From NCBI RefSeq assembly GCF_018691265.1, contig NW_024881277.1, forward strand, positions 6,741,503 through 6,805,502: 64,000 bases of DNA, given 5' to 3'. The position numbers and the translations under genes were made by a program. Shown one piece after another: positions 8,693 to 39,239 of this stretch (position 1 is its first letter; every line of letters begins with the position of its first letter). This DNA is from Tyto alba. Its lineage: Eukaryota > Chordata > Aves > Strigiformes > Tytonidae. The notes beneath the pieces are model-generated. The model did not search any database. It saw only the letters and a program-made list of their open reading frames with translations, and was not told the origin of the DNA.

Positions 8693-9240
8693 TGCGGAGC
8701 TGCGGACGAACAACACGCCGAGACGGGTTCAATGTGGGTGATAGAGCACCAGTCTACTTGTGTCTTTATTGGTCCAGGGTACATATATTTATACAGACAA
8801 TGATAATTATTATGCCTACTAGTCACTAGCTGATTGGTTTAAGCTCTAAAGTCGTATTCACACGGTCCATCTACTTGCAGTTAGCTAACAGCACAAGCTT
8901 CTCATAACACTAAGTTTCTCATGCCACTATTTCTAATTCCTCTTGACTTGTTTTCAATACACAACAGTACCATAACACAATGTTTCTCAGACCACCGTTA
9001 CCCTAACACTGGTTTTCTCAGACCACTATTCCCAATTCCTCTCAACCTGTTTTCGACACACCACGGTACACAAGGCTGAAGCATCCTTGACATTCTTCAT
9101 TTATCAGCAGCTGCGAGCAGCTGCAGGCAAACCCTAGTGAGGCCCAGCATCAGCGAGGCAGCATCAGCCCTTAGAACAGGCTCTGATCGTACCATTACTC
9201 GTTGGGCTCATGACCCTTGTCTCTGAGCCATTCTCCAACA
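8693..9240 (-). repeat. Solo LTR of the 10.4-19.7 kb provirus family
   Basis: 548 bp, clearly the same LTR as 10,414-10,942 and 19,178-19,722. It is flanked by a perfect 6-bp target-site duplication, GCTTAG (8687-8692 and 9241-9246), the length expected of class II (beta/alpha-like) integrases. TATAAA (minus, 8793-8788) lies about 20 bp before the AATAAA signal (8770-8765). No internal sequence remains, so it arose by recombination between the two LTRs of a full provirus. Confidence 0.93.
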
Positions 9241-10413: not shown

Positions 10414-10942
10414 TGTGGAGCGACGGAGGAATGACACGCCGAGACGGACTCAATGTGGGTGATAGAGCATCATATATCTTTATTGGACCAGGGTACATAT
10501 ATTTATACAGACAGATAATTATTATGCCTACTAGTCACTAGCTGATTGGCTTAAGCTCTAAAGGTCATATTCGCACGGTCCACCTACTTAGCTAACAGCA
10601 CAAGCTTCTCATAACACTAAGTTTCTCATGCCACTATTTCTAATTCCTCTTAACTTGTTTTCAATACACAACGGTACCATAACAAAGTTTCTCAGACCAC
10701 CGTTACCATAACAATAAGTTTCTCAGGCCACTATTTCTAATTCCTCTTAACTTGTTTTTGACACACCACGGTACACAAGCCGAAGTGTCCTTGACATTCT
10801 CATGTATCAGCAGCTGCGAGCAGCTGCAGGCAAACCCTAGTGAGGCCAGCATCAGCGAGGCAGCATCAGCCCTTAGAACAGGCTCTGATCGTACAACTGC
10901 TCGGTGGGCTCATGACCCTTGTCTCTGTGCCATTCTCCAATA
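10414..10942 (-). repeat. 3' LTR of the provirus
   Basis: 529 bp, lying directly after the polypurine tract. On the plus strand it runs from TGTGGAG to CCAATA; the terminal CA has mutated to TA (5' LTR: CAACA). TATAAA at 10507-10502 precedes AATAAA at 10484-10479 by about 20 bp, so the poly(A) signal lies near the U3/R border, as in avian leukosis-type LTRs. Confidence 0.92.
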
Positions 10943-12231
10943 GTTCCCCTTTTTCTTTTTGTACGAGCAGAGCCTGCCCCAACGTTTGTTCAAAGATTTT
11001 CTTAATACATGATAAAGCACAACTTAAACATGCAAGCCCAATAATGACAAAGATCAGAATAAGAAGCAAACTTTGGAAAGGCCTTTTAACCATCCACCTA
11101 ATCCCATCCAGTTAGTGAGTCCGTCTAGTCCAAAGAACCCCACATCTTGTTTTATCTTTTGGGTATGTTCTACAAGCTGTTTAAGTTCCGTATGAATTGA
11201 CCTCGATTTGTCTTCCAAATCCATACAACACATACCCTCAAAATCCTCACAGCCATGACCATGCGCCAAGAGTAGGAAATCAATGGCCATTCGATTTGTA
11301 ATATGGCATGCTGGAGTTCGTTCATACCCTCGGCTAGGCCTGAAAGTACAGTGCTGGTAAGATTTGCCTGTTTTACCACCCAACAAGATAATTTCTCTAA
11401 CTGTCGGTGCGCTTGGGCAGCAGAAGCACCTGGGACAAAGAAAGAAGAGAATATTGCTTCCCATTTGTTCCATAAGTTGACATTGTCATCACAGGCATTA
11501 GTGAGGGTCTTTAGTGCGCATCTATATCGCCGGACTGGATAGGTTTTATTAGGGTGATGATGGGGTAAGGCCAAACTGAGACGCCCAATGGTGCAGGGCC
11601 CTCCAGTGGGTCGGAAGGGGATCCCCTGCCATGCCCGATCACCACAAATGAGAAATAGGCCAGGAGGTAACCTCCTGGGCGTGGTAGTACCAGGGGCTGG
11701 ATGCAGCCTGTTTCGGCTGTTTGACTTACACCAATTTCCCCAACAGGCGCTACTGCCTTGTGAGGATACCTCAGTTCCTACTGTGACCTTGCAAGGGTAC
11801 CGGTTCCCTTCACTGCAGGGGTATTTAGACGCATCTAGGAAAACACAGTAAGAGGCATTCAGTGAGTCTACTAGTTCAAGTTCCTGGGGCGTGGGCCAAT
11901 GGGCAGGCGGTTAGCCCAAGAATCATATTTGTCAAACCAGCTACTCATGTTTGATGCAAAAGCCCTATACCAGTTCCTGGATTGGTTCCAGCGTTGGGCA
12001 TATTCCGCAAGTGTTTGGTTTAGAGAACCCCAGTTGGCACTGTTCAGGGGGATGCCTACCAAGCATGTTAGAAAGGGCGCACTTGGGGTGGCGAGACTAG
12101 TGCAAAAGGTGGTAGTGTTTGCGCTCAGCCTAATGTTACCCATACATTTTCTCTTGGATCGAACACGGTTCTCTTATCCCAACCCCAATCGAATTCGCGC
12201 CCCCCAAAACCAGTAACAGAAACCACCACAT
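10866..12231 (-). pseudogene. Broken env gene, alpharetrovirus-type transmembrane subunit
   Basis: ATG at 12231-12229 starts a signal-peptide-like stretch (MWWFLLLVLGG). The surface-subunit region to about 11,480 is scattered over several frames with stops, but keeps conserved-looking Trp/Cys/Asn-glycosylation text. The transmembrane subunit has a fusion-peptide-like segment near 11,435, then a heptad-rich region. A frameshift near 11,295 separates these from the loop with a CX6CC motif (11,251-11,225). A hydrophobic anchor (about 11,085-11,010, LLLILIFVIIGLACL) and a cytoplasmic tail follow, reading into the 3' LTR. The loop sequence resembles the avian leukosis/sarcoma virus type rather than betaretroviral Env, which lacks this covalent CX6CC arrangement. 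Several frame breaks mean no full Env can be made from this copy. Confidence 0.85.
10943..10961 (-). promoter_or_regulatory. Polypurine tract of the provirus
   Basis: The minus strand reads AAAAAGAAAAAGGGGAA immediately before the 3' LTR. This is the expected site for priming plus-strand DNA synthesis, and it overlaps the coding frame of the Env tail. Confidence 0.8.
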
Positions 12232-12254
12232 TGCTTCAGTTATCCCAAGGAAAT

Positions 12255-15200
12255 TTAACAGTCTGGAACTTCAGAGTGTCCAACGTCCAAAGCGGCCTTA
12301 GTCCACCTGGCAGGAATCCACTGGGAGCCTGAGGGAGTAAGAACACACATATAGCCCTTACCAAGGAACTGGACGTCAGCAGGCCCCTCCCACTTCCCTG
12401 TGGATAGGTCTCTATAATAGACTTTCATGCCCTGTGGTTTGTTGTTCCCGGAGGTGTCAGAATGTTTCTTAACCGGCGCTACATCTGAATCTCCAAAAAT
12501 GCAAAGGTAATTCATCACAAACAGTGCCTTAGCTACTCTCTCTTGGATATTTTTGACGTCGTGGAATTTTTGTAAATATATTTTAATTGTCTGATGTGAT
12601 CTTTCAGTTATAGCCTGCCCAGTTGGAGAATGGGGAATAACTGTGTCCTGAGTGAGTGGTGGAGTCTTTTGGTGGCAGGGGAGGGGGCTATCGGGGCGGC
12701 CCCCTGTGAGAAGCTTCTCGAAGCTCCCCCAGCTCCACGTCAGCTCCAATTCTGTTTGGGAAATTGAGCCAATCGGCTGCGCCTCTGCAATAACATATTT
12801 AAGAAGGGACGTGGTGATGTGCATTCGGACTTGTGAGGAGGAGTTGCTGCAGCTGCATAAACACCAAGGTCAGTGGAGGAACGGAGGAAGAAAGGAGGGG
12901 GGAGGTGTGCCGGAGCAGAGAGCCCCCTGTATCCTGTGGTGAGACGGCAGGGCGGCCCCCCGCTGCCACCCATGAAGATCTACAGTGGAGCAGACATTGA
13001 TTTATGGCCTGTTGCTCCTGCTCGGCATAATCAAGGTTCTGTGCCCGAAGAAGGCCGGGGTCTCATGGGAAAAGGTAGCCCTGCTGCTGTAATTCAGTGC
13101 TGGGAGGATTGCAGCATGCGGGGGAGTCCCACGCCAGAGCAGCTCGGGAAGGGCTGCAGCCGTGGGAGAGAATCCAGTCAGAGCAAGTTAGTGACCCATG
13201 ACGGAGCAGTGTGGGGAACGCTGCAGCCCATGGGAGGAATTCAAGTCGGAGAAAGTTTGTGGAGGACTGTCTCCTGTGAGAGGGGGACCACGATGGAGCA
13301 GGGGGAACAAGTTTCAGACACTCCCCTCACCAAAGATGAAGGAGTGGCAGCGCTGACTGCACCCCCCATTCCCTGCCCCTGCACCACTGGGGGAGGAGGT
13401 AGAGATATCGGGAGCAGAGCTGAGCCCGGGAAGAAGGGAGGGGTGGGGGGAAGGTGTTCTCAAGATGTGGCAATGCTTCTCACTGTCCTACTCTGTTATG
13501 TGTTGTTAGTGTCTGTAATAAATATATGGGTTTTTTCCTTCCCCTAACGAGTCTGCCTTTTGCTCGTGATCATAAAAGGGTGATTTTTCCCCATCCCAGT
13601 CCTATCTTGAACCCCAAGCCTGGCTCTCTGTCCCTTCTCATTGCCGGAGGGGAAGGGAGAGATATCTGCTGCATTGTGGTTGGCTGACAATCAGGCCTAA
13701 ACCACAACAACCTGTCATGTGTACAACCCCCCAGCTCTGACAGAACTTTCTCATTTTTTCAGTAATATAAGCCCGACCATTGTCCGTTTTATCTTCTGTG
13801 GAACCCCCATGACAGCGAAGCAGCTCGTCAAATGGCGTACTATGTGCAATACCTTTTCGCCTGTCTGGGGCGTGGCCCATACAAACGGGCTGTATGTGTC
13901 AATTGTGACGTGCAGATATCTTAACCGACCAAACTCTGGGACATGCGTCACATCCATCTGCCAGAGGTCACAGGGGCCCAACCCTCGGGGGTTAACTCCT
14001 GACTCCCAGGCCAGGACCATGATGGCTGCACTCTGGGCAGGCTCTTACAATCCCTTTGCTTCTTCAGTGGTTATATTAAACTGTTTTTTCAGGCCTTTTG
14101 CATTCTGATGGAAAGTAGCATGAGCCTCGTGGGCCTTGACAAAGTCGCTGAGTGGCACTGTTAGGGTGACGAGTCGGTCTGCTCTTTGATTCCCTTCCCC
14201 TAGTCCTTGGGACCACATATGACTTCTTATATGAATGACTGCATACGGATTCTGGCGCTGTTGCAAAGCAGATTGAAGTTGGCAAAATAGTTCATTTAAT
14301 CTGGGATTTTTTGAGTCCCTGAGTCATGCATCTTCTATACGGTGTAGCACTCCTGCAACATATAAGGAATCAGTTACTACATTGAGACGTTGATCATGCC
14401 ATCAAAGGATGACCCAAACCACTGCTGACAGTTCAAGCGTTTGCAATGAGTCCCCTGGAATAGCTGACAAAACATGGTGGTGCCATAATTTATCCTCCAA
14501 CCAGGTGACGGCGGCACGCTTAGATTTCTTTCCAGCATCAGTGAAAGCAGTAATGGTGTTTGATAGAGGCGTCTCACTGCGTTTGGAAGGCATGATCCAG
14601 TCGTGTTGGCTCACCCATTGCAGTACTGGCGATTTGATTGGGGTCACTGCTATATTCCTGAGCTGCAGTTAGCAGGCTGGCTTGCAACTTCTTCCGATTG
14701 TCTGATGCACCATTCAAGCAATCTCCCTCTTGATGGGGAGATGTATGCTGCCCGGTTCAGATCCCGTAATCTGTAGGATGCGAGTTCGGCCCTTTCTAAT
14801 TAATTCTGCTAGGTTCTCCAGTTTTGTGAATGGATTTCTGAGGCCGTAGCCTTGTGTATACCGCTTCCAGTACCTTGACCTTCTCCCCCTTTTTCTTTTG
14901 GTGTTGAGTTAATGCGCCGATGAGCTGGGATGGGCCATTTAAGATGGTGAGGTCTACCGGTAGCCGGGGATCTCGGCGGTCAACCCATCGCTGGGTAACG
15001 TAGTCTGCAATTCGGGACAGGGTTGATCGTTGTTCCTCTGATAAGTGCACCGGGCGAGCGGGATCAACCCCCTGGAGTAAGGGTCAGAGGACATCCAATT
15101 CATCATTGGCAATTCCTACCACAGGGCGAAGCCATTGTAGGTCTCCAAGCAACTTCTGTGCGTCATGTAAGGTACGGACATCAAGCTGTATCTGTAATTT

Positions 15201-15885
15201 CTGTGGTTGTATTTGTGAGTCCATTATCAGCCACCCAAGGTATTTCCACAGTGCCGAAGACTTAACCTTTTCAGGAGCAATAACAAGGCCTTCCTTTTGA
15301 AGAGCGTGAGTCAAAAAGGAACGTTGCTGGTCAGAGAAAGGGCATTCTTGAGCAATCAGAATGTCATCCATATAATGATATATAATTGCAGTAGGCCAGA
15401 CAATTCTGACAGGTAGTAAGGCATTGCTTACAAACAGTTGACAGAGTGTTGGACTGTTCTTCATTCCTGTGGCAATACTGTCCACTCAATCAGCTGAGCC
15501 GGTGCTTCACGATTAATCGATGGGAGGGTGAAGGCAAAGTGCTGTGTATCCTCTGGATGCAGTTGGATGGTAAAGAAGCAGTCTTTCAGATCAACAATGA
15601 GTAGATGCCAGTGTTCAGGCAGCATAGATGGATTGGGCAGCCCGGGCTGGAGGGCTCCCATGGGCTGCATCTGCGCATTTACCGCACGCAGATCATGGAG
15701 GAGGCGAAATTTCCCTGACTTTTTCCGGACAACGAATATGGGTGTATTCCACGGGCTAGTGGACAATCGTAAATGTCCCTGAGACAGCTGTTCCTCAATT
15801 AGTTGATGCGCTGCTGCAAGGCTTTCCTTTTTCAACGGCCACTGCTTGATCCAAAACGGGGTGTCTGATAACCACTTCAACGGGA
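12255..15885 (-). pseudogene. Broken pol: reverse transcriptase, RNase H, integrase
   Basis: RT begins near 15,880 with a betaretrovirus-like opening (WIKQWPL) and the VDLKDCFF active-site motif. A frameshift at about 15,485-15,461 separates it from the segment carrying YMDD (15,374-15,363). The connection region lies at 15,050-14,800 and RNase H (TAFTDAG, Asp at about 14,539) at 14,650-14,380. The integrase zinc-binding HHCC region is at about 14,210-14,020 and the first catalytic Asp (WQMDVTH) near 13,954. The second Asp (TDNG, 13,784) and the Glu (12,605) are on opposite sides of the nested 1,066-bp LTR. The C-terminal DNA-binding domain ends near 12,255. Frameshifts and stops also occur around 14,780, 14,370 and 13,880. 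The catalytic residues are recognisable but the gene is dead as read. Confidence 0.93.
12644..13709 (+). mobile_element. Nested solo LTR (1,066 bp) inserted in integrase
   Basis: It runs TGTCCTGAG...CCACAACA and is flanked by near-identical 5-bp duplications, AACTG (12639-12643) and ACCTG (13710-13714), one mismatch. Integrase coding text on either side is in the same frame once one duplication copy is discounted, proving secondary insertion. Promoter features in plus orientation are CCAAT at 12769-12773 and TATA-like ATATTTAAG at 12795-12803; the poly(A) signal AATAAA is at 13517-13522. The 1-kb length, 5-bp duplication and sequence resemble the common avian ERVL-type LTRs. A deleted copy of the same family lies at 21,376-22,079. 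A 224-codon open frame (12,873-13,547) lies inside. Confidence 0.92.
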
Positions 15886-16630
15886 TCAGGAAAGCTTTAG
15901 AAGCAGTGACCGTAGCTGAAAAGGATCGCTGGTAGTCAGGATGACACCAATCTGGTCCAGCACATCACGGCCAATTAGGCCATAAACTCCTTGAGGCAGA
16001 GGCATAACTGTTACATACGTATTCGCGACTCTCCCATCTATGATCACTCGAATATGCTCTCTGCTGCACATCACTGATGAGTGTCCCCCAACTCCTTCGA
16101 ACCCCACGAGCCATAGGTACCAAAGGCCAGTTGGGTGGCCAATGGTTATTGTCCACAATGGTGAGGTCGGCTCCAGTATCCAATAATACAGTAAGGCAAA
16201 TCTGTGTCCCATTCGAGCAGAAGGTAACGTCGGTCACCGGACAGCTATTCATTGCCATAGTTAGCAGAGCCAAATCTCCTGTTGATCCAAAGCCAGCGGT
16301 TCCCCTGGTAACCGTGGGGGAGGCCTCCATCTCTTTGGTCAGTTGGGGCAGAGGCACTAATTGAGCAATTTTGCTGTTTGCTGGAAAATGAATTGGGGGA
16401 AATAAAGTCTGTACCATTATGCATATAGTCCCAGTAAAGTCAGCATCAATAATTCCTGGCAGAATAAACAGTCCTTTAATGCTGCTTGATGATCGCCCAA
16501 TTAGTAAAGCACCTTGTGGCTGTCCATTAATTACTATTGGGCCCTTAACCTTAGTTGCAATCCTTTGCGGTTGTTGATCGATCAGTGTAACATCTATTGC
16601 TGTCGCCAGGTCCAAGCCGAGGCTCCCTCT
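15886..16630 (-). pseudogene. dUTPase-protease region of the provirus
   Basis: A dUTPase domain occupies about 16,627-16,277: an opening SLGLDLATA motif, GRSSSSIKGLFILPG in the middle and a glycine-rich RGTAGFGSTG end. It lies directly upstream of a retropepsin with LLDTGADLTIV (Asp-Thr-Gly at 16,180-16,172). A dUTPase placed before the protease is a hallmark of betaretroviruses. The protease C-terminal half, with the GRDVL motif near 15,960, is in another frame, so a frameshift at about 16,110-16,130 inactivates it here. The dUTPase is in the same frame as the nucleocapsid, so no ribosomal frameshift is needed between gag and dUTPase in this copy, unlike classical betaretroviruses. Confidence 0.88.
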
Positions 16631-18339
16631 AGTGGCTGGCTGGAGGGCACTCGCAGGAACGGATTCTTGTTGGCAGATGCTGGAACTTGTTGCTGAGGCA
16701 GTATCAGGCTGTTGTCTAGCTGTGCAGGGGCTGCCACTGTTGTCGTTGCGCGGCAGCCCGTCGCACTCATTTGGGTGTTTCCCTGATCGCCCACATGCAC
16801 TGGTGTTATGGCTATTCATGTTGCACTTCCCGCACCAGACTCGTCGAACAGGGCATTCTTGTCGAATGTGTCCTTCTTTCCCACATCGAAAACACTTGGG
16901 ACGGCGCCACGTCGGTGGTCGCTGTTGCTTCTCAGATGGACGTAATGGGGCTAGGGCTGCAAAGGCTTGGTGCTGGGCCTGAATCAGGTCCCTCCCTAAC
17001 TCCCGAACTGCTTCTACCAACATAGCCTGGGGGCCTACAGGCACCCTGCTCATACATTCCAACATCTGCTCTATCCTAACATCCTCAGGAAATGTTAGTA
17101 TAATAGACTTTGTTGCTGGGTTAGCATTTTCTAAAACACACTGCCTGAGGAGCACAGGTTTCATCCAGTCTTGAACCTCTGCCTGTTCTATAGCTGCGGT
17201 TACCCGATCAATGAACTGTGCAAAGGTTTTGTCCCGTCCCTGTTTTATTGCCATATAAGATGGAGAAGGGGGGGGCTGTTTTAACTGCGGCTATGGCTAG
17301 CCTTGCTGTCCGCATGGCCTCCAGGCAGACATCTGGACCTTGCTGCATTTGAGCGTCTATGGTAATATATCGCCCCACTCCTATAAGCTGTTCCACAGTT
17401 ACCCCAAACAGTGGGTCATGCTGCTGTCTGGGCTGTTGAGCTGCTATTTCACAGAGTCGTTGCCAGTGGGCCTGCCATATCAATAACTGAGACTGGGTCA
17501 TAATCATTTTCATAACAACCTTAATATCTTCCTGACACAAAAGGGTTCCCCCCCATATGTAATTTAATAACTGCTTCGTGGGTTCACCATGTAACCCAGA
17601 CTCATTAACAGTACTACTCAACTGCGAGAGCATTTTCCAATTCAATGGACTATGGCTGCCATAAATGGCTCCATCTTCAGCCCATTTGAATCAAACTGGA
17701 AATGCCAGATTCTCAGAGAGGGTACCAACAATGTCATATTGCTTATCCTCTGCCGCCTGGCGCATGATCTCCCGCCAGTCAACATGACGTACCCACCCCT
17801 GTGCTTTCGTTGTATCTGACCACATTGGGAGGCCATCTTCCCTCTCCCCCCCCGCCTCCGAGGTTGGGGGGGGGTGGGGGAGCATGACTGTAAGGGCACT
17901 GGGGTGGGGCTGGCCTCCAGACTTCCCCTATTTATGTTAACAGAAACTGGCACTCCTGTTGATGGTACAGGAATATGATCACTGTCAAAACCATAGAACC
18001 GGATGCATCACTTTCTGGGGTAACAGTGGAACTTTCCCCCCCCAACTTTGTAGTTGCCACAGCTGCAAGGTTCTTTTCAAGCTGATATCGCTTAATATTA
18101 TTCACCACCTTCCTCCACGGTTTCATCATTTTCCTTGCAGCTTTATCCTTGTCAATTACCATATCCCATAAAACATCACCTAATCGTCTCCAATCCTCGA
18201 CATCAAAAAGAGAATTAGGATTTTGAAAACATCCTTTGACCTGTCATAACGCTACTAATCCCGCAAGTGATTTTACACAATCTACTCCCCGTTTTTCTAA
18301 AAAGCACTGTAATAAATCCAGGGCTACCTCCTGTTCCAT
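16631..18339 (-). pseudogene. Broken gag of the provirus
   Basis: The probable ATG is 18339-18337, followed by a matrix-like helix-rich stretch with a stop or frameshift near 18,240. Matrix text continues to about 18,000. A proline-rich segment follows near 17,850, then capsid N-terminal text (17,645-17,255). A frameshift at about 17,255-17,210 leads to capsid C-terminal text containing a major-homology-region-like motif (IKQGRDKTFAQFIDRV, near 17,245-17,200). The nucleocapsid has two CX2CX4HX4C zinc knuckles at 16,894-16,853 and 16,834-16,793, both complete. At least three breaks prevent a full Gag. The zinc knuckle pair and domain order agree with an orthoretroviral, beta-like Gag. Confidence 0.88.
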
Positions 18340-18344
18340 ATCGT

Positions 18345-18640
18345 CGAACTGGTGCTCCCTGATTAAGGCACCTCCGGTCCTGCACTGCCTGGCTAAGGCA
18401 CAGTACCGTTACCGCCGACACACCCCTGATGAAGGCACTGACGGCCCTGTGCTCCCTGGCTAAGGCACAGTAACGCTCCCGCCGGCCCGGTGCTCCCTGA
18501 TTAAGGCACCTCCGGTCCTGTGCTCCTTGACTAAGGCACAGTACTGTTACCGCCGACCCACCCCTGATTAAGGCACCGTCGGCCCTGTGCTCCCTGTCTA
18601 AGGCACAGTAATGTTCCCTTACTTTGACATGTTGCTGATG
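18345..18640 (-). repeat. Leader tandem repeat, about 139-bp unit with inner repeats
   Basis: Two units begin GGTGCTCCCTGATTAAGGCA at about 18,351 and 18,490. Within them the phrases CCTG[A/G].TAAGGCAC and CTAAGGCACAGTA recur every 30-50 bp, giving a higher-order repeat. It lies between the primer site and the gag start, in untranslated leader on the minus strand. Confidence 0.8.
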
Positions 18641-18756
18641 CTCCGTGATTAAGGCACCAGTTGCAGCTCTTGCCAGTAGCCCTTGCAGAGAGCGACCCTC
18701 TATCTTGGTTCAGGTCCTCGGAATGACACATCGGAGATCCAATGTTCGATCGTTCT

Positions 18757-19130
18757 TGATCCCCGGGCGCTGCTGTATCTGGTGTTTCTCCGTGTCCGTT
18801 TCTGATCCCCCGGGCGCTGCTGTATCCTGCACTTCTCCGCTTCCGGTCTCGACCCCCCGGACACAGCTGTATCCGGCACTTCTCTGCTTCCGGTCTCGGT
18901 CCCCGGGCGCTGCTGGAGCCGGCGCTTCTCCGCTTCCGGTCTCGACCCCCCCAGGCGCTGCTGTAGCCGGCACCTCTCCGCGTCCGCTCTCGATCACCCG
19001 GGCGCTGCTGGAGCCGGTGCTTCTCCACGTCCGCTCTCAAATCCCCGGGTGCTGCTGTATGTGACGCTTCTACGCGTCCAGTCTCGGTCCCCGGGCGCTG
19101 CTGTACCCGGCGCTTCTCCGTGTCCGCTGC
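18757..19130 (-). repeat. GC-rich 47-bp leader minisatellite, about 8 copies
   Basis: The plus-strand phrase CCCCGGGCGCTGCTGTA plus about 30 bp (CCGGCGCTTCTCCGCTTCCGGTCTCGA-like) recurs at about 18,760, 18,808, 18,855, 18,901, 18,948, 18,997, 19,043 and 19,091. The spacing is 46-49 bp. The copies differ by substitutions, so it is not an assembly stutter. It occupies the proviral leader directly after the primer site. Confidence 0.9.
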
Positions 19131-19156
19131 TCCATCCGTGTTATTCTTCTGTGCAG

Positions 19157-19174
19157 GTCCCTGTTCAGGTGCCA
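19157..19174 (-). promoter_or_regulatory. Primer binding site, tRNA-Lys type
   Basis: The minus strand reads TGGCACCTGAACAGGGAC three bases after the 5' LTR. It differs from the standard Lys3 primer site (TGGCGCCCGAACAGGGAC) at two CpG-derived positions, as expected from CpG decay. Confidence 0.88.
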
Positions 19175-19177
19175 TCT

Positions 19178-19722
19178 TGTGGAGCTGCGGAGGAACGACA
19201 TGCCGAGACGGACTCAATGTGGGTGATAGAGCATCATATATCTTTATTGGACCAGGGTACATATATTTATACAGACAAGCGCTAATTATTATGCCTACTA
19301 GTCACTAGCTGATTGGCTTAAGCTCTAAAGGTCGTATCCGCACGGTCCACCTACTTGCAGTTAGCTAACAGCACAAGCTTCTCATAACACTAAGTTTCTC
19401 ATGCCACTATTCCTAATTCCTCTTGACTTGTTTTCGATACACAACGGTACCATAACACAAAGTTTCTCAGACCACCATTACCATAACACTAGGTTTCTCA
19501 GACCACTACTTCTAATTCCTCTTAACTTGTTTTTCGACACACCACGGTACACAAGGCCGAAGTGTCCTTGACATTCTTCATGTATCAGCATCTGCGAGCA
19601 GCTGCAGGCAAACCCTAGTGAGGCCCAACATCAGCGAGGCAGCATCAGCCCCTTAGAACAGGCTCTGATCGTACAATTGCTCGGTGGGCTCATGACCCTT
19701 GTCTCTGAGCCGTTCTCCAACA
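19178..19722 (-). repeat. 5' LTR of the provirus
   Basis: 545 bp, very similar to 10,414-10,942. TATAAA at 19271-19266 and AATAAA at 19248-19243 are both intact. The plus-strand view runs TGTGGAG to CCAACA. On the minus strand it is followed by AGA and the primer site. Confidence 0.92.
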
Positions 19723-21375: not shown

Positions 21376-22079
21376 TGTCCTGGGTTGAGTGAGTGGTGGA
21401 GATTTTTGGTGGCAGGGGAGGGGGCTATCAGGGTGGCGCCCTGTGAGAAGCTTCTCGAAGCTCCCCCAGCTCCAAGTCAGCTGCACTTCTGTTTGAAAAA
21501 CTGAGCCAATCAGCTGCGCCTCTGCGATAATGTATTTAAGAAGGGACGTGGTGATGGACAGTCAGACTGGTGAGGAGGAGTTGCTGCAGCTGCATGAACA
21601 CCAAGGTCAGTGGAGGAATGGAGGAAGAAAGGAGGGGGGAGGTGTGCCGGAGCAGGGATCCCCCTGTATCCTGTGGTGAGACGACAGGGCGGCCCCCCCC
21701 TGCCACCCATGAAGATCTACGGTGGAGCAGACATTGATTTGTGGCCTGTTGTTCCTGCTCGTATGATCAAGGTTCTGTGCCTGAAGAAGGCCGGGGTCTC
21801 ATGGGAAAAAGCAGCCCTGCTGCTGTATTTCAGCGCTGGGAGGATTGCAGCATGCGTTGGAGTCCCACGCCAGAGCAGCTCGGGAAGGGCTGCAGCCGTG
21901 GGAGGGAATCCAGTCAGAGGAAGTTAGTGACCCATGATGGAGCAGTGTGGGGAATGCTGTGGCCCTTGGGAGGAATTCAAGTTGGAGAAAGTTTGTGGAG
22001 GACTGTCTCCTGTGAGAGAGGGACCACGATGGAGCAGGAGGAATAAGTTCTGGACACTCCCCCATTGTGGTTGGCTGCC
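21376..22079 (+). repeat. Internally deleted copy of the 1,066-bp LTR
   Basis: It matches 12,644-13,340 closely. It then jumps within a run of C (about 22,060) to the last part (CATTGTGGTTGGCTG), so about 340 bp including the poly(A) signal is deleted. CR1 sequence follows. Confidence 0.85.
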
Positions 22080-23530: not shown

Positions 23531-25733
23531 ATTGCATTTATTGCCACTTATGTGAGTGAAAATGTGTTCCTCTGCTAGAAACCGAGATGCTGTTCCATCC
23601 TTTCTCTAGCTCATTTTCAAAAATCTTTTGTTCTCTTTCTAAATCTTGTGGTTGGCCAATATCTAGCTGCAGTTATTTAATTTGTAACCAGAGTCTGTGT
23701 CTGTGGACCCTAAGATCTTATGTTGTTTTGATTAAGACAATTTTCTTAAACTGGGAAATTCCTTCGTCCTTCAATTTCTGGATGGTTTTTTGCATGTTCT
23801 TTACCTTTTCAACTATTCTTCTCAGAAGAAAACTATTTCTGAATGCACCAGATTGGATCAAGATTCTCTATTGCTGGGGCAATGGGAGAAGCCCAAGGAG
23901 CCCCTGGGCCAGGAGTCTGTTCCTGGGAGAGGGGCTGGCCCAGAGGGTCTTGCTGGCAGGGGACAATAAGATGCCTGGGAGACCGGAGCAAGGGACACAG
24001 GGAGACACTGGCCTCCATCTCCTCATGCCATGGCTGGCCCTCAGCCCTGGGGCTGATGGGGAGCCTGAGACACCTCTCCTTCCTTCCTTCACTCCCCACA
24101 CGTGGATGGGCCTCAGGAAACATCCAGGAGCCTGGAGGTTGCACAAACCTCCTGGGCTGAGGTCCACCTGCTGCAGGGGAAGAGGAAGGGTGTGTGAGAC
24201 AGATGGGAGTGCAGGGAGAGAGTGGGGGGGTGTGGCAGTGTGTGTGTAACAAACAGTAAGATGAGAGGTCTGCGGCAAGGGGAGGTGTGGGAGTGTATTG
24301 TAGTGAAGTGAAAGTGGTGGAGTTTTGATTTGAAGGAGAAGGTGTACAGTTCAGTGCTGAGACATGGAGCTATATAGATGACTGAAGTAAGGCTGGGTTC
24401 GGGGATAACTTTGACAATTGAGGAGCAATAGCAGGCCTTTGGAAGAAGTTCCACAGGTTATGGGGAACTCACAGCCATTTGAAAAAGAAGAGAACATGAC
24501 AGATTTGTGTTTGAACAAATAATGAATTAGGACAGAGTGTTACCAGTAAATCTTGGGATGCGATGGGATCAGAGTGAGATGGGGAAGCAGAGGTGGTGGT
24601 TCTGCACAGAAACAGGCACAGGCATAGGCAAGTGTAGGACAGCCTGTGGTGGGAATGTCCCCTCCGATGGGGCTGGGACCCCCCAACACAACTGAAAGCC
24701 TTGTCCTTCTGACAATGGCTGCTGTCTCTTCCACTGAGGTCCCTGAGAGCACACCAGTTCCTTACAGCCACAGCGCTTCTGCTGCCTCCTCCTCTACCCT
24801 CCACACAGCCTGGGAGGAGTCCTCCCGCTGTCCTACACTTGGCATCACACACCCCTACATCTCACTGACCCCAGGAAGAGCCCTCAGCATCCCTGAGGGG
24901 AAGGATCCCCATTCCCAGGCTATGGGCGTCAGGGCTTGAACAGCCTGCATGAAGAAACACATCAAGGGCTTTCACAGTCACCTGAACATTTGATTTTCAG
25001 CCTGGCAGCAGTGCCTCTGCCTTCCTGCTTCACCACCCCAGGGACAGGAACCTTGTCTCCTCATTCCCTCCATGGGCTCTTCAGTGATGGCCCTCGGTGG
25101 CGATCACTGACACCCTCAGGAACTTGGAGGGTTCCTGCTGACTCCGACTTCTCTAGAGGCCAGATTCAATCCCTTTCCAGGATCTGCAGTTCAGCAACTT
25201 GGCACCAGAGGGCTCAGAAGCAGCTGAAACGTCCTCAATAGCCAAGTCTCTGAGTATCACTGAATTCCTCAGTTCCTATGTGGTGAATTTGAGTGGTTTC
25301 AGAAGCTGTAGTCAAAGTGAAAAAGATTTCAGTATTAAATGTTAATAAGAAACAATCTCTTCTTTTTCCACTAGTTCTTATTTTCCTGCTTACACACTAA
25401 GTGACATCACCCAACTGCAACTGATACTGATTCTAGAGCATCTCCTGATTAAGTCTGAATATGGATGGAAGTCAAGACCCTGTATGTCAGACACTCTCTG
25501 GGCAGTGTTTGTCCCTACCTCGAACCCCACATGTCTCTCACCAGCCCCCTGTGACTTACAGCACCTTTGTTCCAATCTGAGCTTTCTCCAGGATGGTCTG
25601 TAGATGCACATTTCAGCCCATTCACACCAACACCTACTTGACGTACTTGGGAAATGAGCTGCACACAGACACAGAAGAATGTTTCTTCCCTGCCAAAAAA
25701 CAAAACCAAATGATTGTCCTGTTCAATAATATT
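23531..25733. other. Copy A left part, no gene seen
   Basis: 23,870-24,170 (GGGGCTGGCCCAGAGGG... CTGATGGGGAGCCTGAGACACC) is closely repeated at 43,550-43,800. The frames on both strands there are GC-driven. A GT-rich stretch at about 24,200-24,350 is absent from copy B. Confidence 0.5.
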
Positions 25734-25892
25734 AAAAAAAAAAAAAACAAACAAAAACAAAAACAAAACAAACAGAAAAAAACCAAACAAACAAACAAAA
25801 AAACAAACAAACAAACAAAAAAAAACAAATAAAAAAACAAACCAAAAAAACAAAAAGAAACAAAAAAAAACCAAACAAAAAAAAAAAAAAAC
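25734..25892. repeat. (AAAC)n low-complexity tract, copy A
   Basis: About 159 bp of A-rich AAAC/AAAAC units. ORFs across it (Lys/Gln/Asn or Phe/Leu/Cys-rich) are not genes. Confidence 0.95.
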
Positions 25893-26569
25893 AGAACTCC
25901 TCTTCTGCATATGAAGTCCACCTAAACTGCTCTGAAGTCCAATTTCTATCGTGGAGACGCCCTTACAGCAAAGGAAAATATATTTTATGTCAAGCAGAGA
26001 ATCCCCTGACCCAGACTCTGTCCATAATTACTCACGGTTTCTCACACGCTGAAGTTATAAGCTCCCTAAATTCACAGAGGGATGTAAAGAGTCTAAAAAA
26101 GGGAAATTTCCTGTTTTGAATAGTCATATCTGCACTAATCCCACTGTATGTGGGCTACAAGTACATCTTCCAGTAGGCTCTGCAACATCCTGGACCCACT
26201 CATTTCTTATTCGCCTCCAACACGAGGCAGCTTGGGTGCAATTGTCCAGGCTTCCTCATCTACTCAAGGGACAGAAATGAGCTGTCTCGACTGAGATGCT
26301 TTGGCTCACCCTGCCTGTCCACCAGCTCCTGCTCCAGAAAGTCTCCCATCAGCCTGGGGACACATTTCCCAGTCCCGATGCCATGGCCTCATCTACCCTT
26401 GTGTATCTTGCAGGCAGTGGTCACCACTTTGTGGGCAACTGAATCAACCCTTGAATGAAGATGTTTGGCAAAAGTTGAACCATTTTAAGAAACAGGTTGA
26501 GAAGTGGATCCCTGGATAGAAAACAGTTTACGGATTTCTCCTGGCTACATCCTGTTCAGTATTTGGTTG

Positions 26570-26880
26570 GGTTTTCTTCATCATGCTGTCTTATCTGCAG
26601 ATCTTCAGGGCCAGTGCTGAGGATCCCCTCTGAGCAGGGACAGCACAAAGCCTTCTCCATGTGCCTCCCTCACCTGGCCGTGATCTCCCTGTTCATCCAC
26701 ACTGCCATGTTTGCCTACCTGAAGGCCTCCTCTATGTTCTCCCCATCTCTGTATCTGGTAGTTTCATTTCTGTAATAGGTGAATGCTTTCAGCATTGAAC
26801 CCCCTCTTCTATAGCATAGGAACCAGGAACCTCAAGGATGCCCTGACGGAAACCTATCGGAGGTTTTTCAGCAGCCATAG
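26570..26880 (+). pseudogene. Olfactory receptor 3' fragment, copy A
   Basis: The end of TM5 (YLQIF), then LRIPSEQGQHKAFSMCLPHLAVISLFIHTAMFAYLK (TM6 and extracellular loop 3), a stop at about 26,774 and frameshifted TM7/tail remnants. Everything before TM5 is missing. One extra base near 26,612 (GGCCAGTGCTG against GGCCGTGCTG in copy B) shifts the frame. It is a decayed family-14-type OR. Confidence 0.88.
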
Positions 26881-28039
26881 ACTCTCAGCCTTTCTCTGCA
26901 GATGACCCCTACTATATGTCATGACAGCCCAAGAATACCTTTGCTTCTCTATACATTTTGGTCCTCGTTTTTCCAGTTGTGATGATGTGTTCTTCAAAGA
27001 AATAGCATTATTCTTTCCCTCCTACTTCAGTATCCAACCATCTTGTGCAACCCAGAGACTTGGTCTCAATAAGCAAGCTCTCTGTGTATTTAAGCAGAAT
27101 ACATGAACTCACAACTTTTTGCCTTAGATCCATCCTGATCGGGGCAGGAATGAATGGGGAATGAAAACACCTTTCTGGCTGCACCATCTCAGGTCAAGCC
27201 TCTCTGACAGCATGGCAGCAGAAGCTGCCTGAGAACCTCCAGGGCCAGGGCTCTTGTGCAGGTCACGGGAGAGGGGATGGCATGGAGGGGCTGCAGAGCC
27301 CTCAGGCATGTGCTGGAGAGGAGAGCATGGGATGCAGGTGACACTGGACCTCCTTCTACTTGTGCCACTGAATGCCTCCCATCTCCGGGGCTAACCCCTC
27401 TCGTGCCCCCAAGGAGCTGCTCTGCCTTTCAGAGGGGCTTGAGGCATGTGGTGGGAGTACCAGGAACCTGCCTTGGGACTAATCCCAGACTGGGCTTTTC
27501 TGGGGAATGAGGTGGAGGAGGTCAGGGGAGGAGGAAATCTTGGCAGAAGTTGGCTTGAGTGGAAAGTAGCAGGAAGAGAAAAACAACAGAGTATAAGTTG
27601 TACTGCATGACCACACAGGGGTGAGGACACACCAGGGGATTTGTGGTGCAGAGCCAGGGCTTGTGGAAGGGATTGAAGGCATGCAGGTGCAGGAGAGAAG
27701 AGGCTGGTCTGTGCCCTTTTTTAGAATGAACAGACCAGGAAGGTGACCCAGGGCCTTCATCTCCCCCCAGCCTCTCTCACTGGCCATTTCCAGCACTGGC
27801 TGCTCACCCAAACTTATGGGTGAGTCTTTCTGTGAGACCATCTCCATCCTCCTGCTGGTCTCAGTGCCTGTATGGGGGGACCGGTCAGCCCTGCCCGGCC
27901 TCTCTCCTGGCCACAGACCCCGGCAGACCCTGGAGCAGGGCTGTCTGTAAAGACCAGCATGGGACACAACTGGGTCTGGGCAGGGGTCAGATGCTGGGGG
28001 AGCCTCCAAACCATCATGGACTTAGGAGAAGGGGCAATG
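26881..28039. other. Copy A, between OR fragment and CR1; no gene seen
   Basis: Near-identical text in copy B (45,870-47,060). ORFs such as 28,009-27,479 have counterparts in B that break at different places, arguing against coding constraint. Confidence 0.45.
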
Positions 28040-29110
28040 AAAACTGTCTTAGGGTTTGCGACACAGAACCTTTCAACTATCACAAACCAAATGAAGGAGG
28101 TGATTGGGAAAATCCAGCAGATATTGCTCAAGGGCAAATCATGCCAATATAACATCATCATCTTCTTCAACAAAATAACATCTTCTGTTGACATGGGGAG
28201 ATCAGTGGATGTTGTTGTCCTGGACTTCAGCAAAGCATTCAACACTGTTTCCTACATCCTTCTCCTGGACAAAGTGGCAAGACAGAGATTGAAGCATTGG
28301 TGTGAGAGATGGGTAGGAAATTGGCTCAGAGGCTGCACTCAGAGGGTGGTGATCAATGCTTTTACTTAGGCTGGAAGCCTGTAGCACATTGGATCCCCCA
28401 GGAATTGGTACCGGGTCCCATGCTGTTCAACATCTTCATAAATGATCTGGATGTTGGGATTGAAATCACCCTCAGCAAGTTTGCTAATGACGTTAAGCTG
28501 GGTGGTGAGGTGGACATGCCAGAAGGGAGAGTCATCTTACAGAGAGACCTGCACAGGCTGGACGAATGGGCCAGCAAGAACAATATGAACCACAAGACAA
28601 AGACAAGTCAAAAGTCCTGCACCTGAGTCAGAGCAACCAAAGAGCCCAGTAGAGGCCAGGAGGTGTGTGGCTGGGGAGCAGCCTTGCTGAGAGGGAACCT
28701 GGGGGTTCCTGGTGGACAGCAAGCTGAAGAGGCTCCGGCAGTGCCCCTGCTGCAGCAACAACAGCAAATAGGCTCCTGGGCTGCATCCACAGGGGCGTTA
28801 CGAGCAGACACAGGGACATGATCATCCCACTCTGCTCAGGCTTTGTCAGGCTACAGCTGGAGTGCTGTGTCCAGTTCTGGTCCCCACAATGGAAGAAATC
28901 CACAGGCAGACTGGAGACAGTCCAAAGGGCTAAGGACAGTCATTCACTGGAAGGAACTCCCCAAGGATGTGGTGGAGTCCCCACCACTGCAGGTTTTCAA
29001 GAAACAATTGGACAGGGTGCTAGGTAGTCTCATGTAGGCTCCCTTTCCCACAAAACTTTGGACCAGAAGATCTTTTGAGGTCACTTCCAACCTGGTCTGG
29101 TCTATTATAC
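28040..29110 (+). repeat. CR1 LINE, RT C-terminal half to 3' end, copy A
   Basis: RT text reads VDVVVLDFSKAFNTVSY, a broken [15 protein letters not shown] equivalent near 28,400, then [12 protein letters not shown]. The CR1 3' region follows (CAAATAGGCTCCTGGGCTGC...; GGAACTCCCCAAGGATGTGG; CTGTGATTCGATGAAT end). Stops and frameshifts make it dead. Confidence 0.92.
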
Positions 29111-29400
29111 TGTGATTCGATGAATATCTCTTTGGCCAGTTGGGGTCAGCTGTCCTGGCTGTGTCCCATCTAATCCCCAAATTCTTGCCCATCCCCAGCT
29201 ACTTGTTGGGAGGAAGAAGAGTAAGAAATAAAGAAGACCCTGATGCTGCACAACCGTTGTTCCACAATAACCAAAACACTGCTGTGTTCTCAACACTGGT
29301 TTAATCTCAAGCGCAAAACAATCCACCATAACGGCTGCAAAAATGAAAGTTAACCCCATCCCAGCCAGACGAAACACACTTGCACTGGGGGCCCCAAAAT
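29111..29400 (-). repeat. LTR family 2 fragment, copy A
   Basis: CAGTTGGGGTCAGCTGTCCTG...AGTTAACCCCATCCCAGCC matches the right half of the LTR at 7,105-7,800. The rest is missing. Repeated at 48,112-48,350. Confidence 0.6.
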
Positions 29401-32189
29401 TGATACGACAGTGTATAGGTGTTCAAACGAGTGATGAGTGTTTGGTAAATCACTCCCCTCACTCTTCTGGCAGGGCTCCTCTTTAAACACTCCAGGACAC
29501 TGCTGGCTGCCTTTGCAACCAGTCATGCTGGATTGTGCTGATCGCTGCTGGATCATGTTTTGCTTCGTGACCCCCAGCATGACCAAGTACTTGTCCGCAG
29601 AGCTGCTCCCCAGCCAGACAGTCCCCTTCTCCTGTCACTGCAGGGTGTCAGTCTCTCCCAGGGGCAAGACCTGAACATTTTCCTTCTTCTGTCCTGTGAA
29701 GTTCCTGACAGGACAGTCCTCTCATCTGCCAGGTTTCATTGGAATGGCATCCCTAGGGCACAGGAATGGTCCTCTCAATTTACTGTCATTGACAAACACT
29801 GTCAGAATTGACTCCTCTGGGTTAGAGATAGAGTTGTTAAATTGTCCAGATCCCAGGAGATTTTCCTGTGCTGCCCCACAATGCCCCAGTATCTCCCACT
29901 GCACTCCAGGTAGGGTATGACCCCTTCACCACAGCTCTCTGAGCCTGAACCTCCAACTGGTGTTTCACCTCTCTGTCTGTTGACCCACCCAGACTGTAAT
30001 GGCCTAATGTGGGTACAAGAATATTGAGGGAGATCATGGCCAGTGTCTTGCAGCATTGGAAGTACCTGACATCCACTGTTCTTATGTCACGCACAAAAAC
30101 AGTTACTTCATCCTGCAGGCAATCAGGTTAGCAGGGCATGATTTACCCTTGGAAAGTCCCTGCCAACTGAATTTGGACATTTTCTTCTCTTTTAGGTGCC
30201 CAGGAACGTCACCCAAGAGGACTCTAACTGACGGCACACTCCTCACCAAAGAGAGCTTGTACAGCCTGTGGTTCCCTGGGTGGCCCTTGTGGGCTCTTTC
30301 CAAGATGGCTGCAACATTGGCTTGTCCTCTCCCACAAGAAGCCTCTACCAATCCCATGACCTCTTAAAAGACATATGCCAAAGAAATATCCATATTCAAG
30401 TCTAACTTCATTGCCACTACCCTGCCTGGTTTACCACATACTTAATTTCTCTAATATTTCATGAATTTGCACCTGGCCAGGATACAATGAACATTTCTCA
30501 CGTCACCTTTTCAGATGCAGACCCCTGAGGCAAAGGACCTTTCCATTATCTCCAGATTTTCTCCTGCCTTTATTCTTTGTTCCTTCAGATAACTCTCACC
30601 TATGTTGCTCTTTTGAACTTCAGGGAGTAAAAACTGTCAACAGCCTCATTTTCTCCTTAGTCAACACTTTAATTGTGTTTATACCTATCTTTGTGTATTT
30701 ACCTACCTAAGGTATTTCTCCTGACAGTAGCCCTTGCATAAGGCAACCTCATTAGTGATATCTTGTATTTAACATATGCATCTGGATCAGTCTTTATTGC
30801 TGATGAAAGTTTATCATACTTTAGATTTCTTTGTTTCCAAGGAACAGAAACCCTTCTGTGCCTGTGGGCAGCCAGTTCTCTAAGGACAGCAGTGGGAGCT
30901 GGTGCAAAGGACCTGTAAGATCCAGCTGCAGAGATCAGTGGAGAAGGCTGATGTAAGGAGAAGTGATGCAAGTCCCAGGAAGGCCAATGTGAAAAATGGT
31001 GAGACTGGGCAATGAGGAGGAAGGTTGTCCATTCTGTGGTGGACCCCAAGGGACTGTCCAGACCTCCCGAGGAGACACTCTGCATCAATATCAGACACAG
31101 AATGTTGTTATCACCTCTTCTCTAAACTGAAATTAATATAATATGCTCTTTATAATGAAGAATCATTTTTATTAGATATCTTTGGAAATGTTCTTCCTTG
31201 ACTACATTCCAAAATTAATTCAATTAGCTGTACAAGTCTTGAAGACTTCAAGAAAATAACAGGAAAATGCATGGCTTGTTAGTACATTCTGTATTTTAAT
31301 GAGCCCCATGGTGTGTTTGGCCCGGAGTCCATGAGCCTCAGATACTGAGTGGAGACTGAGCAAAATACTCAAGAAGTCAAAGTCAGAAGAAAACCCAAAG
31401 TACCTTGAAGCATTGATTGGCCCCACTGAGGGCCATTACTGACAAAGCCTCCCCATGGACTCGTTAGAGCAGATAATTGGAGGCTGTGATTACAGGTAGG
31501 CAAAGGCACTGTGCAGGTGGCTGTAAGGCTGCAAAACCCCTTGGTTTGTTTTATGAAGCAGAAAGGCCAAGCCCTGACCCCCAGGCCCTGCGAAGGCATG
31601 TCATGACCCTCACTGTGTGGGTCAGGGCTCTTCCTGGGGGCAGTGGGGTGTGAGGGTGAGCAATGCCACATTTAGGGAAACTGCACAACACCTCCCGGCT
31701 TCCCCAAGAAGGGACAAGGAGGAAACAATGTTCAGAGTTAGAAAATAAGATTTATCCTGGCAGGCTTCAGTGACAGAGGCAACTGCCATAGCCAAAGGGA
31801 CAAAGAGCTTGGGTTTTTTGTAGCCTTTCAGCCCTTTATGAGCCCTTGGCTACTTCTACTGCAGGTTTTCTTCTGCTGTCCCCTTCATGTATGTTTTTCC
31901 CTTCAGGCTCCTGGCATCCATCTTGCTTTCCCACCTAGCTGTCACCTCAGCATTTCTGTACTTTCATTGATATATCTCCACCATCGCTGGCTGTTCCCTG
32001 ACAAATAATGCCACGGGCTGATCACAAACTTCACTGACTGCCATTCTTACACAATAATGCCACCCTTTCAGTGAGATTTCCTTTTCTCACATCCAGTCTG
32101 AACTTTCCAAGCTGCGTTTTGTTTTCTTCTCTTCCCGCTACCAAGAAAAGCTCCATCATCACTGAAAGTGCCCTTCAAGCACTTTCACA
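29401..32189. other. Copy A, unassigned single-copy-like stretch
   Basis: Collinear with 48,360-51,140. Some short frames are shared between copies (for example near 30,100-30,360 and 49,050-49,300), but their lengths differ and no domain was recognised. Confidence 0.4.
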
Positions 32190-32720
32190 GGCTACTGCTA
32201 CAGTGCCCTGAGCCTCCACTTCAGCAGACTGAGGAAGCCCAGGTCCCTCAGCCACCCCACAGACCCCAAACTCCTTCCTCAGAGATCTCGTTTGAAGCTT
32301 CTCCATTTCCCCTCCATTCCTCCAGAACAGAGAGCCCCACCCCCAGACACACTAGTCCAGATGTGGCCACACCAGTACTGTGTGAACGGGGATGATAATC
32401 CCCTTCTCTGGGTGGCCACGCTCCTCCTAACTCTGCCCTGTTTGCACTTGGCCTTATTTATGCTGATCATGCCCCGCTGGCTCACATGGCATCCCTTGTA
32501 ATGCCCAGGCTCTTCTCATGACGGTCAGTCCTGGGCTGGTCGGGTCCCAGCCTGCCCTCCTGTATGGGGTTATTCTCTCCCCAGTAAGTGACTGGCTGCT
32601 TCTACTTGTAAAACTTCATGAAGTTTCTATTGCCAAATCCAAGAGTTTCTCAAGGTCCCCCACAAGTGAATGTTCATTGGGCCAGATTTTAATGCCAGGC
32701 AGAAGTGACCTGGCAGCCAG
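32190..32720 (-). repeat. CR1 LINE fragment, mostly specific to copy A
   Basis: Antisense CR1 text: 'ctgaggaagcccaggtccctcagcc...ccagatgtggccacaccagt...gctcttctcatgacggtcagtcctg...'. Only its first ~60 bp are present in copy B (about 51,140-51,200). Confidence 0.65.
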
Positions 32721-33299
32721 CACCCGAGGGGACACCACGTGCTGCTGTGCTGCAGAGGCCCCTGCTCAGTCACCCCAGCAGTGCTGGAGGCAGGCGATGC
32801 CCTCCACCACCCCGCAGGTACTCTGCCTGCCTGCCAGCTCCTGCTCCAGAAGGGACCCCATATGTCCTGGGACACACGGGTGCTCCAGCTACACCAGGGC
32901 AGTGGCCACCTCTGTGTGGATGGCAGAATCATGTCCTGAATGTATATTTTGGAAAAACTTCTAATTCAGCATAAAAGAGCTCGATATAATAGATGAGAAA
33001 GTCTTCATTTCCAGCACTGTGAGGTTTTTAAGGAAGATTCTTTCCAGTTTACTTAGTCTTTTATTAACAGCACCAGGGGTATGTCCTATCAAACTGAATA
33101 TTGCTCTCTTGCTCTGTAGAAATAGTTTTATGCAGCCACTTATCACAATAAATTTTCTTACCAATAATTGAAATGGAGAAACATTGCTCAGAAGAGCTAC
33201 CGTGTTTATACAGGCACATTATTTATTCTACTTATGCCTCTCTGTCTTTTCTCCTTCCTCCGCCTATTTAACTTCAATGAGCTTTTCAATGGAAAGATC
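32721..33299. other. No gene seen
   Basis: AT-richer stretch present only in copy A, with short unremarkable frames. Confidence 0.4.
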
Positions 33300-34240: not shown

Positions 34241-34244
34241 TCTA

Positions 34245-36270: not shown

Positions 36271-36274
36271 GTTA

Positions 36275-39233: not shown

Positions 39234-39239
39234 GTAGGC

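What the first reader, a model, noticed from the sequence alone, without database searches (positions are those of the whole stretch)
10414..19722. Mosaic avian provirus: betaretrovirus-like gag-pro-pol with an alpharetrovirus-like Env
The internal genes carry betaretroviral hallmarks: a dUTPase domain just before the protease, two zinc knuckles, a Lys-type primer site and a beta-like RT opening. The Env transmembrane subunit instead has a CX6CC loop whose sequence resembles avian leukosis/sarcoma-type Env. The LTR also has AATAAA about 20 bp after TATA, as in alpharetroviral LTRs. This suggests ancestral recombination between beta-like and alpha-like viruses in birds. The two LTRs are very similar, so the lineage was active fairly recently.
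Basis: partly seen in the sequence, partly recalled or inferred. Interest (0 to 1): 0.75.

Follow-up and report, generated by a model that had tools for sequence, protein, structure and literature searches.

The report
Bird retrovirus fossil, alpha-beta intermediate
An old, broken retrovirus in a bird chromosome has inner genes of a widespread bird lineage lying between two known virus groups and an outer coat gene like that of avian leukosis viruses, and signs of the same pairing in other birds suggest an old lineage and not a single accident.

Summary
The provirus is real, on the minus strand (LTRs 19722-19178 and 10942-10414), and broken: open frames split in gag, pro, pol and env, plus a roughly 1 kb insert in integrase. 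It has a Lys-like PBS, two zinc knuckles, a dUTPase before the protease, class II RT and a PPT. The Env is avian-type in SU (Pfam Avian_gp85) and TM (CX6CC, cysteine pair around an internal fusion peptide, NLT); its best solved match is ASLV. Integrase and dUTPase side with betaretroviruses; the RT piece is equally like alpha (58%) and beta-like (54-60%) RTs. 'Alpha-beta intermediate' fits better than 'beta'. The pairing seems not unique: killdeer RT and TM models with near-neighbour locus tags show one contig length, and a chickadee model holds integrase plus this Env. The Env sits apart from the ASLV branch, so an ASLV-like donor is unlikely. Whether the pairing arose by recombination or by descent from a common ancestor is open (p-AU 0.245). 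LTRs differ at 22 of 530 sites and the provirus shows no target-site duplication, so 'recent' is weak. In ten paper searches, the listings and passages I saw did not describe this combination; most subscription papers are not held.

The parts
19178..19722 (-). 5' LTR (545 bp), TG...CA ends, TATAAA and AATAAA 23 nt apart
19157..19174 (-). primer-binding site, tRNA-Lys3-like (16/18 by eye; tRNA recalled)
18351..19137 (-). leader between PBS and gag, with two tandem-repeat arrays (67/138 bp and 47/188 bp periods)
17935..18243 (-). gag, matrix piece; resembles by eye the N-terminal part of relative P0155; no Pfam match
17211..17690 (-). gag, capsid N-terminal domain (PF00607, 99.5 bits)
15968..17290 (-). 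441-residue frame: capsid C-terminal domain, two zinc knuckles, dUTPase, first half of protease
15889..16233 (-). protease second half in another frame; RVP is the only Pfam match, no G-patch
15464..15964 (-). RT fingers/palm
15087..15485 (-). RT palm (YMDD) and start of thumb, other frame
14048..14323 (-). end of RNase H (18.3 bits, below its cut-off) and start of integrase zinc domain (PF02022, 35 bits)
13754..14044 (-). integrase catalytic core, closest to MMTV integrase
12640..13710 (-). nested insert in integrase (limits approximate, judged by eye); part of it has a second copy at 21386-22062 (92%)
12258..12640 (-). end of integrase core and C-terminal DNA-binding domain (PF00552, 33.9 bits)
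11874..12173 (-). Env SU N-terminal piece, resembles P0001 by eye; no Pfam match
11173..11910 (-). Env SU C-terminal part (Avian_gp85), cleavage region, internal fusion peptide with flanking cysteines, NLT sequon; Env reading is lost after residue 205
11057..11485 (-). Env TM: CX6CC loop and second heptad-repeat region, other frame
10869..11111 (-). Env TM anchor and tail, other frame; assigned by eye from likeness to P0002, no family above its cut-off
10946..10960 (-). polypurine tract
10414..10942 (-). 3' LTR (529 bp), begins TA instead of TG

Best explanation
A decayed provirus of a class II retrovirus lineage that is widespread in birds (gene models of its relatives are often named after HERV-K; Jern et al. 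2005 called such elements alpha-beta intermediates). Its gag-pro-pol carries dUTPase and a beta-like integrase, and its Env is of the avian gamma-type otherwise known from alpharetroviruses and EAV. Shown: gene order, domain types, one unit between two LTRs. Strongly indicated but indirect: linked pol and Env pieces in a shorebird and a songbird. Inferred: it once replicated like a simple retrovirus (Lys tRNA primer, LTR promoter, spliced env, covalently linked SU-TM with an internal fusion peptide), entered the germ line, and was then broken by frameshifts and a nested insertion. The pairing of pol and Env is older than this copy; it arose either by an env exchange near the pol-env border through template switching, or by descent from a common ancestor of alpharetroviruses and avian alpha-beta viruses.
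For: Domains in order on one strand between two LTRs. Integrase core 46/74 identical to MMTV, 31/76 to RSV, MMTV to RSV 29/74; integrase C-terminal piece 58.4 bits to MMTV, 24.2 to RSV. dUTPase 68.5 bits to 2d4l, 36.9 to 1f7d. Env: Avian_gp85; TM piece to ASLV 53.4 bits, filovirus GP2 26.3, Syncytin-2 14.5; relative P0001: ASLV 85.5, filovirus 40.7, gamma-type TMs 26.4 at most; BFVD best rows EAV-HP and ALV Env, from a low-confidence model. Chickadee P0014 has Integrase_Zn 42.4 bits and Avian_gp85 49.4 bits in one model. Of the 120 RT rows listed (of 717 hits), 31 bear an organism name, all birds, 18 genera.
Against: RT does not separate alpha from beta. Capsid scores are weak for every genus (16-23 bits). 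In the integrase C-terminal piece lentiviral chains (about 28-31 bits) score above RSV, so that piece argues for MMTV but says little about alpha. Poecile integrase is nearer MMTV by a small margin only (59.3 against 49.0 bits for RSV), and P0014, which ends before the TM loop, matched no Env chain in the PDB. The own genome was never searched, so copy number and further copies of the join are unknown. The killdeer link rests on contig length and tags, and the Poecile model could be a predictor's join.
Confidence: 0.8

Rival explanations
1. Lateral recombination: a beta-like virus of birds took the env of an alpharetrovirus-like virus.
For: Integrase and dUTPase side with beta while Env sides with alpha/EAV. 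On the free TM tree the window Env and the Poecile-type Env lie apart. Env exchange among class II viruses is documented (PMC3758190, passages).
Against: Holding the two Env groups that have a pol link together costs 2.2 log-likelihood units, p-AU 0.245 (groups named after the tree was seen). The Env is apart from the ASLV/quail branch (loop 27/44 to ASLV, 39/44 to P0001). RT is equally like alpha.
Confidence: 0.4
2. No exchange: avian alpha-beta viruses and alpharetroviruses inherited the avian gamma-type Env from one ancestor; alpharetroviruses lost dUTPase and their integrase diverged, and mammalian betaretroviruses changed Env.
For: RT equidistant. Env relatives bear names from 16 bird genera, kiwi and tinamou included (16 of 25 rows named), in three deep groups. 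Jern 2005 places dUTPase-bearing alpha-beta ERVs between the genera and infers that an alpha-like virus acquired the dUTPase (PMC1224870, passages).
Against: Integrase is clearly nearer MMTV than RSV. On the free TM tree the two pol-linked Env groups are not together.
Confidence: 0.4
3. Chimera by nesting or misassembly: the Env belongs to another element.
For: No TSD seen around the provirus, a nested insert in integrase, and repeats spaced 17-19 kb apart in the window.
Against: Integrase C-terminal and SU pieces lie next to each other on one strand and run to a PPT and a 3' LTR that matches the 5' LTR; linked pol and Env pieces indicated in two other birds.
Confidence: 0.04

Closest known systems
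Chicken alpha-beta intermediate ERVs (GGERVAB; Jern et al. 2005, PMC1224870, passages)
   Same: Class II pol between alpha and beta, dUTPase before protease (21 of 67 detected there), no protease G-patch, two zinc knuckles.
   Different: The passages read do not describe their Env; direct sequence comparison was not possible.
Alpharetrovirus (ASLV) and EAV-HP
   Same: Env type: Avian_gp85 SU, internal fusion peptide between cysteines, CX6CC; RT 58% identical to ALV.
   Different: dUTPase present, Lys-like PBS, integrase nearer MMTV; Env in a separate group. That ASLV lacks dUTPase and uses tRNA-Trp is recalled.
TgERV-F (Henzy et al. 2014; paper not held, known here from passages of PMC3758190 and PMC10536682)
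   Same: Bird class II gag-pol with alpha and beta features and an Env of another kind.
   Different: Its Env is a mammalian-like gamma-type, not the avian type found here.
Mammalian betaretroviruses, HERV-K / MMTV / MPMV
   Same: dUTPase and integrase closest to these; RT 86/153 to HERV-K.
   Different: Their Envs are beta-type or mammalian gamma-type (PMC3758190, passages); the 4jf3 TM (MPMV, recalled) scores 20.1 bits against 85.5 for ASLV with the Env relative P0001.

Membership tests
Betaretrovirus | dUTPase N-terminal of protease | tested here: met
   PF00692 66.7 bits then PF00077; best PDB match 2d4l
Betaretrovirus | RT groups with betaretroviruses to the exclusion of alpha | tested here: inconclusive
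   58% to ALV, 54-60% to beta-like RTs; no tree with an alpha RT possible
Betaretrovirus | integrase groups with MMTV rather than RSV | tested here: met
   46/74 against 31/76; 58.4 against 24.2 bits for the C-terminal piece
Betaretrovirus | beta-type (CXnC) or mammalian gamma-type Env | tested here: not met
   avian gamma-type Env
Betaretrovirus | G-patch after protease (mammalian members) | tested here: not met
   only RVP found in 15889-16233; PMC1224870 reports none in chicken betaretroviral ERVs (passages)
Betaretrovirus | gag and pro in different frames | tested here: inconclusive
   one frame in this copy; of 9 relatives aligned, 4 end as gag (P0155, P0159, P0178, P0191), 1 stops at the second knuckle (P0149), 2 are dUTPase-protease only (P0151, P0152), 2 run through (P0148, P0154)
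Alpharetrovirus | Avian_gp85 SU and avian gamma-type TM | tested here: met
Alpharetrovirus | Env inside the ASLV/galliform branch | tested here: not met
   separate 8-row group, 100/100; ASLV with Cyrtonyx 96/92, window pieces outside (the branch between has 92/99)
Alpharetrovirus | no dUTPase; tRNA-Trp primer (recalled) | tested here: not met
   dUTPase present; Lys-like PBS
Avian alpha-beta ERVs (GGERVAB) | pol intermediate between alpha and beta, dUTPase, no G-patch | tested here: met
   judged against the description in PMC1224870 (passages)
Avian alpha-beta ERVs (GGERVAB) | pol tree grouping with the named chicken elements | not testable with these tools
   their sequences are not held

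The most novel reading that the evidence does not exclude
Birds hold a whole, mostly undescribed retroviral lineage that links the genera: dUTPase and beta-like integrase inside, avian gamma-type Env outside. The avian gamma-type Env would then belong first to this bird-wide lineage, and Alpharetrovirus would be a late offshoot of it or a borrower from it. One survey of 53 bird genomes found ALV-like sequences only in 12 Galliformes (PMC10820513, abstract); another counts low-copy alpharetrovirus-related ERVs across birds (PMC4272516, passages), and such hits could be this very lineage.
Probability: 0.3. Interest if true: 0.6.

Novelty: new variant of a known kind. Interest (0 to 1): 0.42.

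Why it matters
[quoted passage not shown] A bird-wide class II lineage with dUTPase and this Env would lift that restriction and make the origin of Alpharetrovirus testable with public bird genomes: one matched set of pol and TM trees would decide between env exchange and common descent.

Tried and rejected
Searching the window's own genome for further copies: the genome search did not answer in 18 tries. Relatives in IMG/VR: four scans, no confirmed hit. Phage records: no match for the RT piece. PHROGs: nothing for P0014. Rfam: nothing at gathering score in the window. Structure models of the RT piece and of P0001 were poor (mean pLDDT 59.9 and 50.5); only identities, ranks and organism names of the Foldseek lists are used, no fold claim (TM-scores of the Env rows are 0.26 and below). 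Continuous gag-pro frame as an alpha-like trait: set aside, since 4 of 9 aligned relatives end as gag while 2 run through. Env switching between lineages as proven: rejected, p-AU 0.245. Dating by LTR divergence: kept only as a rough guide, for lack of a duplication. The RT tree has no alpharetrovirus and a very long FIV branch, so it says nothing about genus.

Full report
What is there. The element lies on the minus strand between LTRs at 19722-19178 and 10942-10414. In its own 5' to 3' order: LTR; PBS at 19174-19157, 16 of 18 to the tRNA-Lys3 complement (tRNA recalled, compared by eye); a leader with two tandem-repeat arrays; matrix and capsid pieces; a 441-residue frame with capsid C-terminal domain, two zinc knuckles, dUTPase and half a protease; protease second half; two RT pieces; RNase H end and integrase zinc domain; integrase core; a nested insert; integrase C-terminal domain; Env in four open pieces; PPT; LTR. 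The copy is dead: no gene lies whole in one open frame (longest open frame 441 residues).

Genus signals, inner genes. RT piece: best solved match HERV-K, 193.4 bits, then FIV 93.7; 86/153 identical to HERV-K. In BFVD, which holds avian leukosis virus, the same piece is 60% identical to rabbit ERV-H, 58% to ALV, 57% to a human ERV, 55% to python ERV, 54% to bovine ERV beta-1, 49% to an unnamed row and 37% to the best lentivirus row (best 50 of 501 rows seen; the model behind it is poor). So RT says class II, alpha or beta. Integrase core: MMTV 99.9 bits, RSV 48.2; 46/74 and 31/76 identical, MMTV to RSV 29/74. Integrase C-terminal piece: MMTV 58.4, lentiviral chains about 28-31, RSV 24.2 bits. 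dUTPase: 68.5 bits to 2d4l, 36.9 to 1f7d. Capsid: 23.2 bits at best, ERV-K 22.4, RSV 16.6, not decisive. Virus names of PDB entries are recalled where the tool printed only a molecule name (7sr6 HERV-K, 5ovn FIV, 3jca/5cz2/7usf MMTV, 5ejk/4fw2/7jn3 RSV, 2d4l and 4jf3 MPMV, 1f7d FIV, 1em9 RSV).

Genus signals, Env. SU piece: Avian_gp85 58.3 bits. TM piece: ASLV 53.4 bits, filovirus GP2 26.3, Syncytin-2 14.5. Its nearest full relative P0001: ASLV 85.5, filovirus 40.7, ERV-S71 26.4, Syncytin-2 24.0, MLV-type 21.2, 4jf3 20.1. BFVD rows for P0001: EAV-HP, ALV ev/J and ALV Env are the three with E at or below 0.001; TM-scores are low. Features that PMC3758190 lists for the avian gamma-type (passages), internal fusion peptide, flanking cysteines, CX6CC and, shared with filoviruses, an N-glycan site at the first heptad repeat, are in the window: cysteines 35 residues apart, NLT, CEDFEGMCC. 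Of the 25 relatives, many of them fragments, the simple patterns found a CX6CC in 19 (in P0021 not at the loop, whose own loop is seen) and the cysteine pair in 16.

Perhaps not a one-off. Chickadee (Poecile atricapillus) P0014 holds an integrase zinc domain and Avian_gp85; its integrase part scores 59.3 bits to MMTV and 49.0 to RSV, and its Env part, which ends before the TM loop, matched no PDB chain. It is 20/24 identical to the window's integrase core piece where they overlap, 26/67 over the zinc region. Organism names occur in 31 of the 120 RT rows (18 genera) and 16 of the 25 Env rows (16 genera), all birds (my count).

Env trees. Twenty-six rows (25 relatives and the window SU piece) fall into three deep groups: the window with P0001-P0006 and killdeer P0022 (8 rows, 100/100); a songbird group with P0014 (6 rows, 100/100); and a group of 12 with quail, turkey, kiwi, tinamou, penguins and parrot (86/81) (midpoint root). 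For a TM-only tree with ASLV and one filovirus row I chose 21 of the 25 relatives; three (P0011, P0012, P0023) gave no usable stretch, leaving 18, with two window pieces as separate rows, 22 rows in all. ASLV joins the quail Env (96/92); the window group stays apart (92/99 on the branch between; few columns, long filovirus branch). Holding window-type and songbird-type Envs together is not rejected (p-AU 0.245; the groups were named after the first tree was seen). Loop identity: window to P0001 39/44, to ASLV 27/44, to zebra finch P0017 24/44.

RT tree. The window piece sits with P0026 and P0027 (96/90); Gavia and Tinamus come next, weakly supported. The tree holds 32 of the 120 listed relatives and two PDB rows, has no alpharetrovirus and is not used for genus.

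Age and setting. LTRs: 508 matches, 22 mismatches, 9 gap runs, K2P 0.043. A solo LTR of the same family at 8693-9240 (91%) has a 6-bp duplication CTAAGC; the provirus flanks do not match by eye. Six bases is usual for alpha and beta integrases (recalled). The window also holds olfactory-receptor frames (2 of the 10 frames scanned) and repeats spaced 17-19 kb apart (20 of 48 families shown).

Literature. Ten searches, of which I saw the listings. Passages read: PMC3758190, PMC9967133, PMC1224870, PMC5006616, PMC10536682, PMC10820513 (38, and its abstract), PMC4272516, PMC11009239, PMC11067759. Henzy 2014 is not held; it and Chen and Cui 2019 are known here only through PMC10536682 and other passages. 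Bolisetty 2012 was seen only as a citation. None of the passages or listings that I saw describes class II gag-pol with dUTPase plus an avian gamma-type Env; most subscription papers are not held, so this is a weak absence.

Verdict. 'Beta' should read 'alpha-beta intermediate', 'alpharetroviral Env' should read 'avian gamma-type Env of its own group', and 'recombination' is one of two live origins.

Noticed in passing
8693-9240: Solo LTR of the same family, same orientation, 91% identical to the 5' LTR, flanked by a 6-bp duplication CTAAGC.
   Followed up: yes
12640-13710 and 21386-22062: About 1 kb insert in the integrase gene, possibly a solo LTR of another family; part of it recurs 8.7 kb away at 92%.
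   Followed up: partly
18351-19137: Two tandem-repeat arrays in the leader between PBS and gag (47-bp unit x 8.2; 67/138-bp units), which strikes me as an unusual place for repeats.
   Followed up: no
25308-40115 against 44308-57192: Many repeat pairs at a spacing of about 17-19 kb, most 83-100% identical, suggesting a large tandem duplication (20 of 48 families shown).
   Followed up: no
36278-37273 and 53657-54394: Olfactory-receptor frames, one of 332 residues and one of 246, 17 kb apart.
   Followed up: partly
P0146 (Tyto alba WC1.1-like model): A barn-owl scavenger-receptor gene model contains a gag stretch 82% identical to this provirus (37% of the query) and, by eye, a short RT stretch; perhaps an exonised relative or a prediction artefact.
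   Followed up: no
P0147 (Pezoporus wallicus CDYL2-like model): A parrot chromodomain Y-like model carries a retroviral dUTPase domain of this family, 47% identical over 65% of the query.
   Followed up: no
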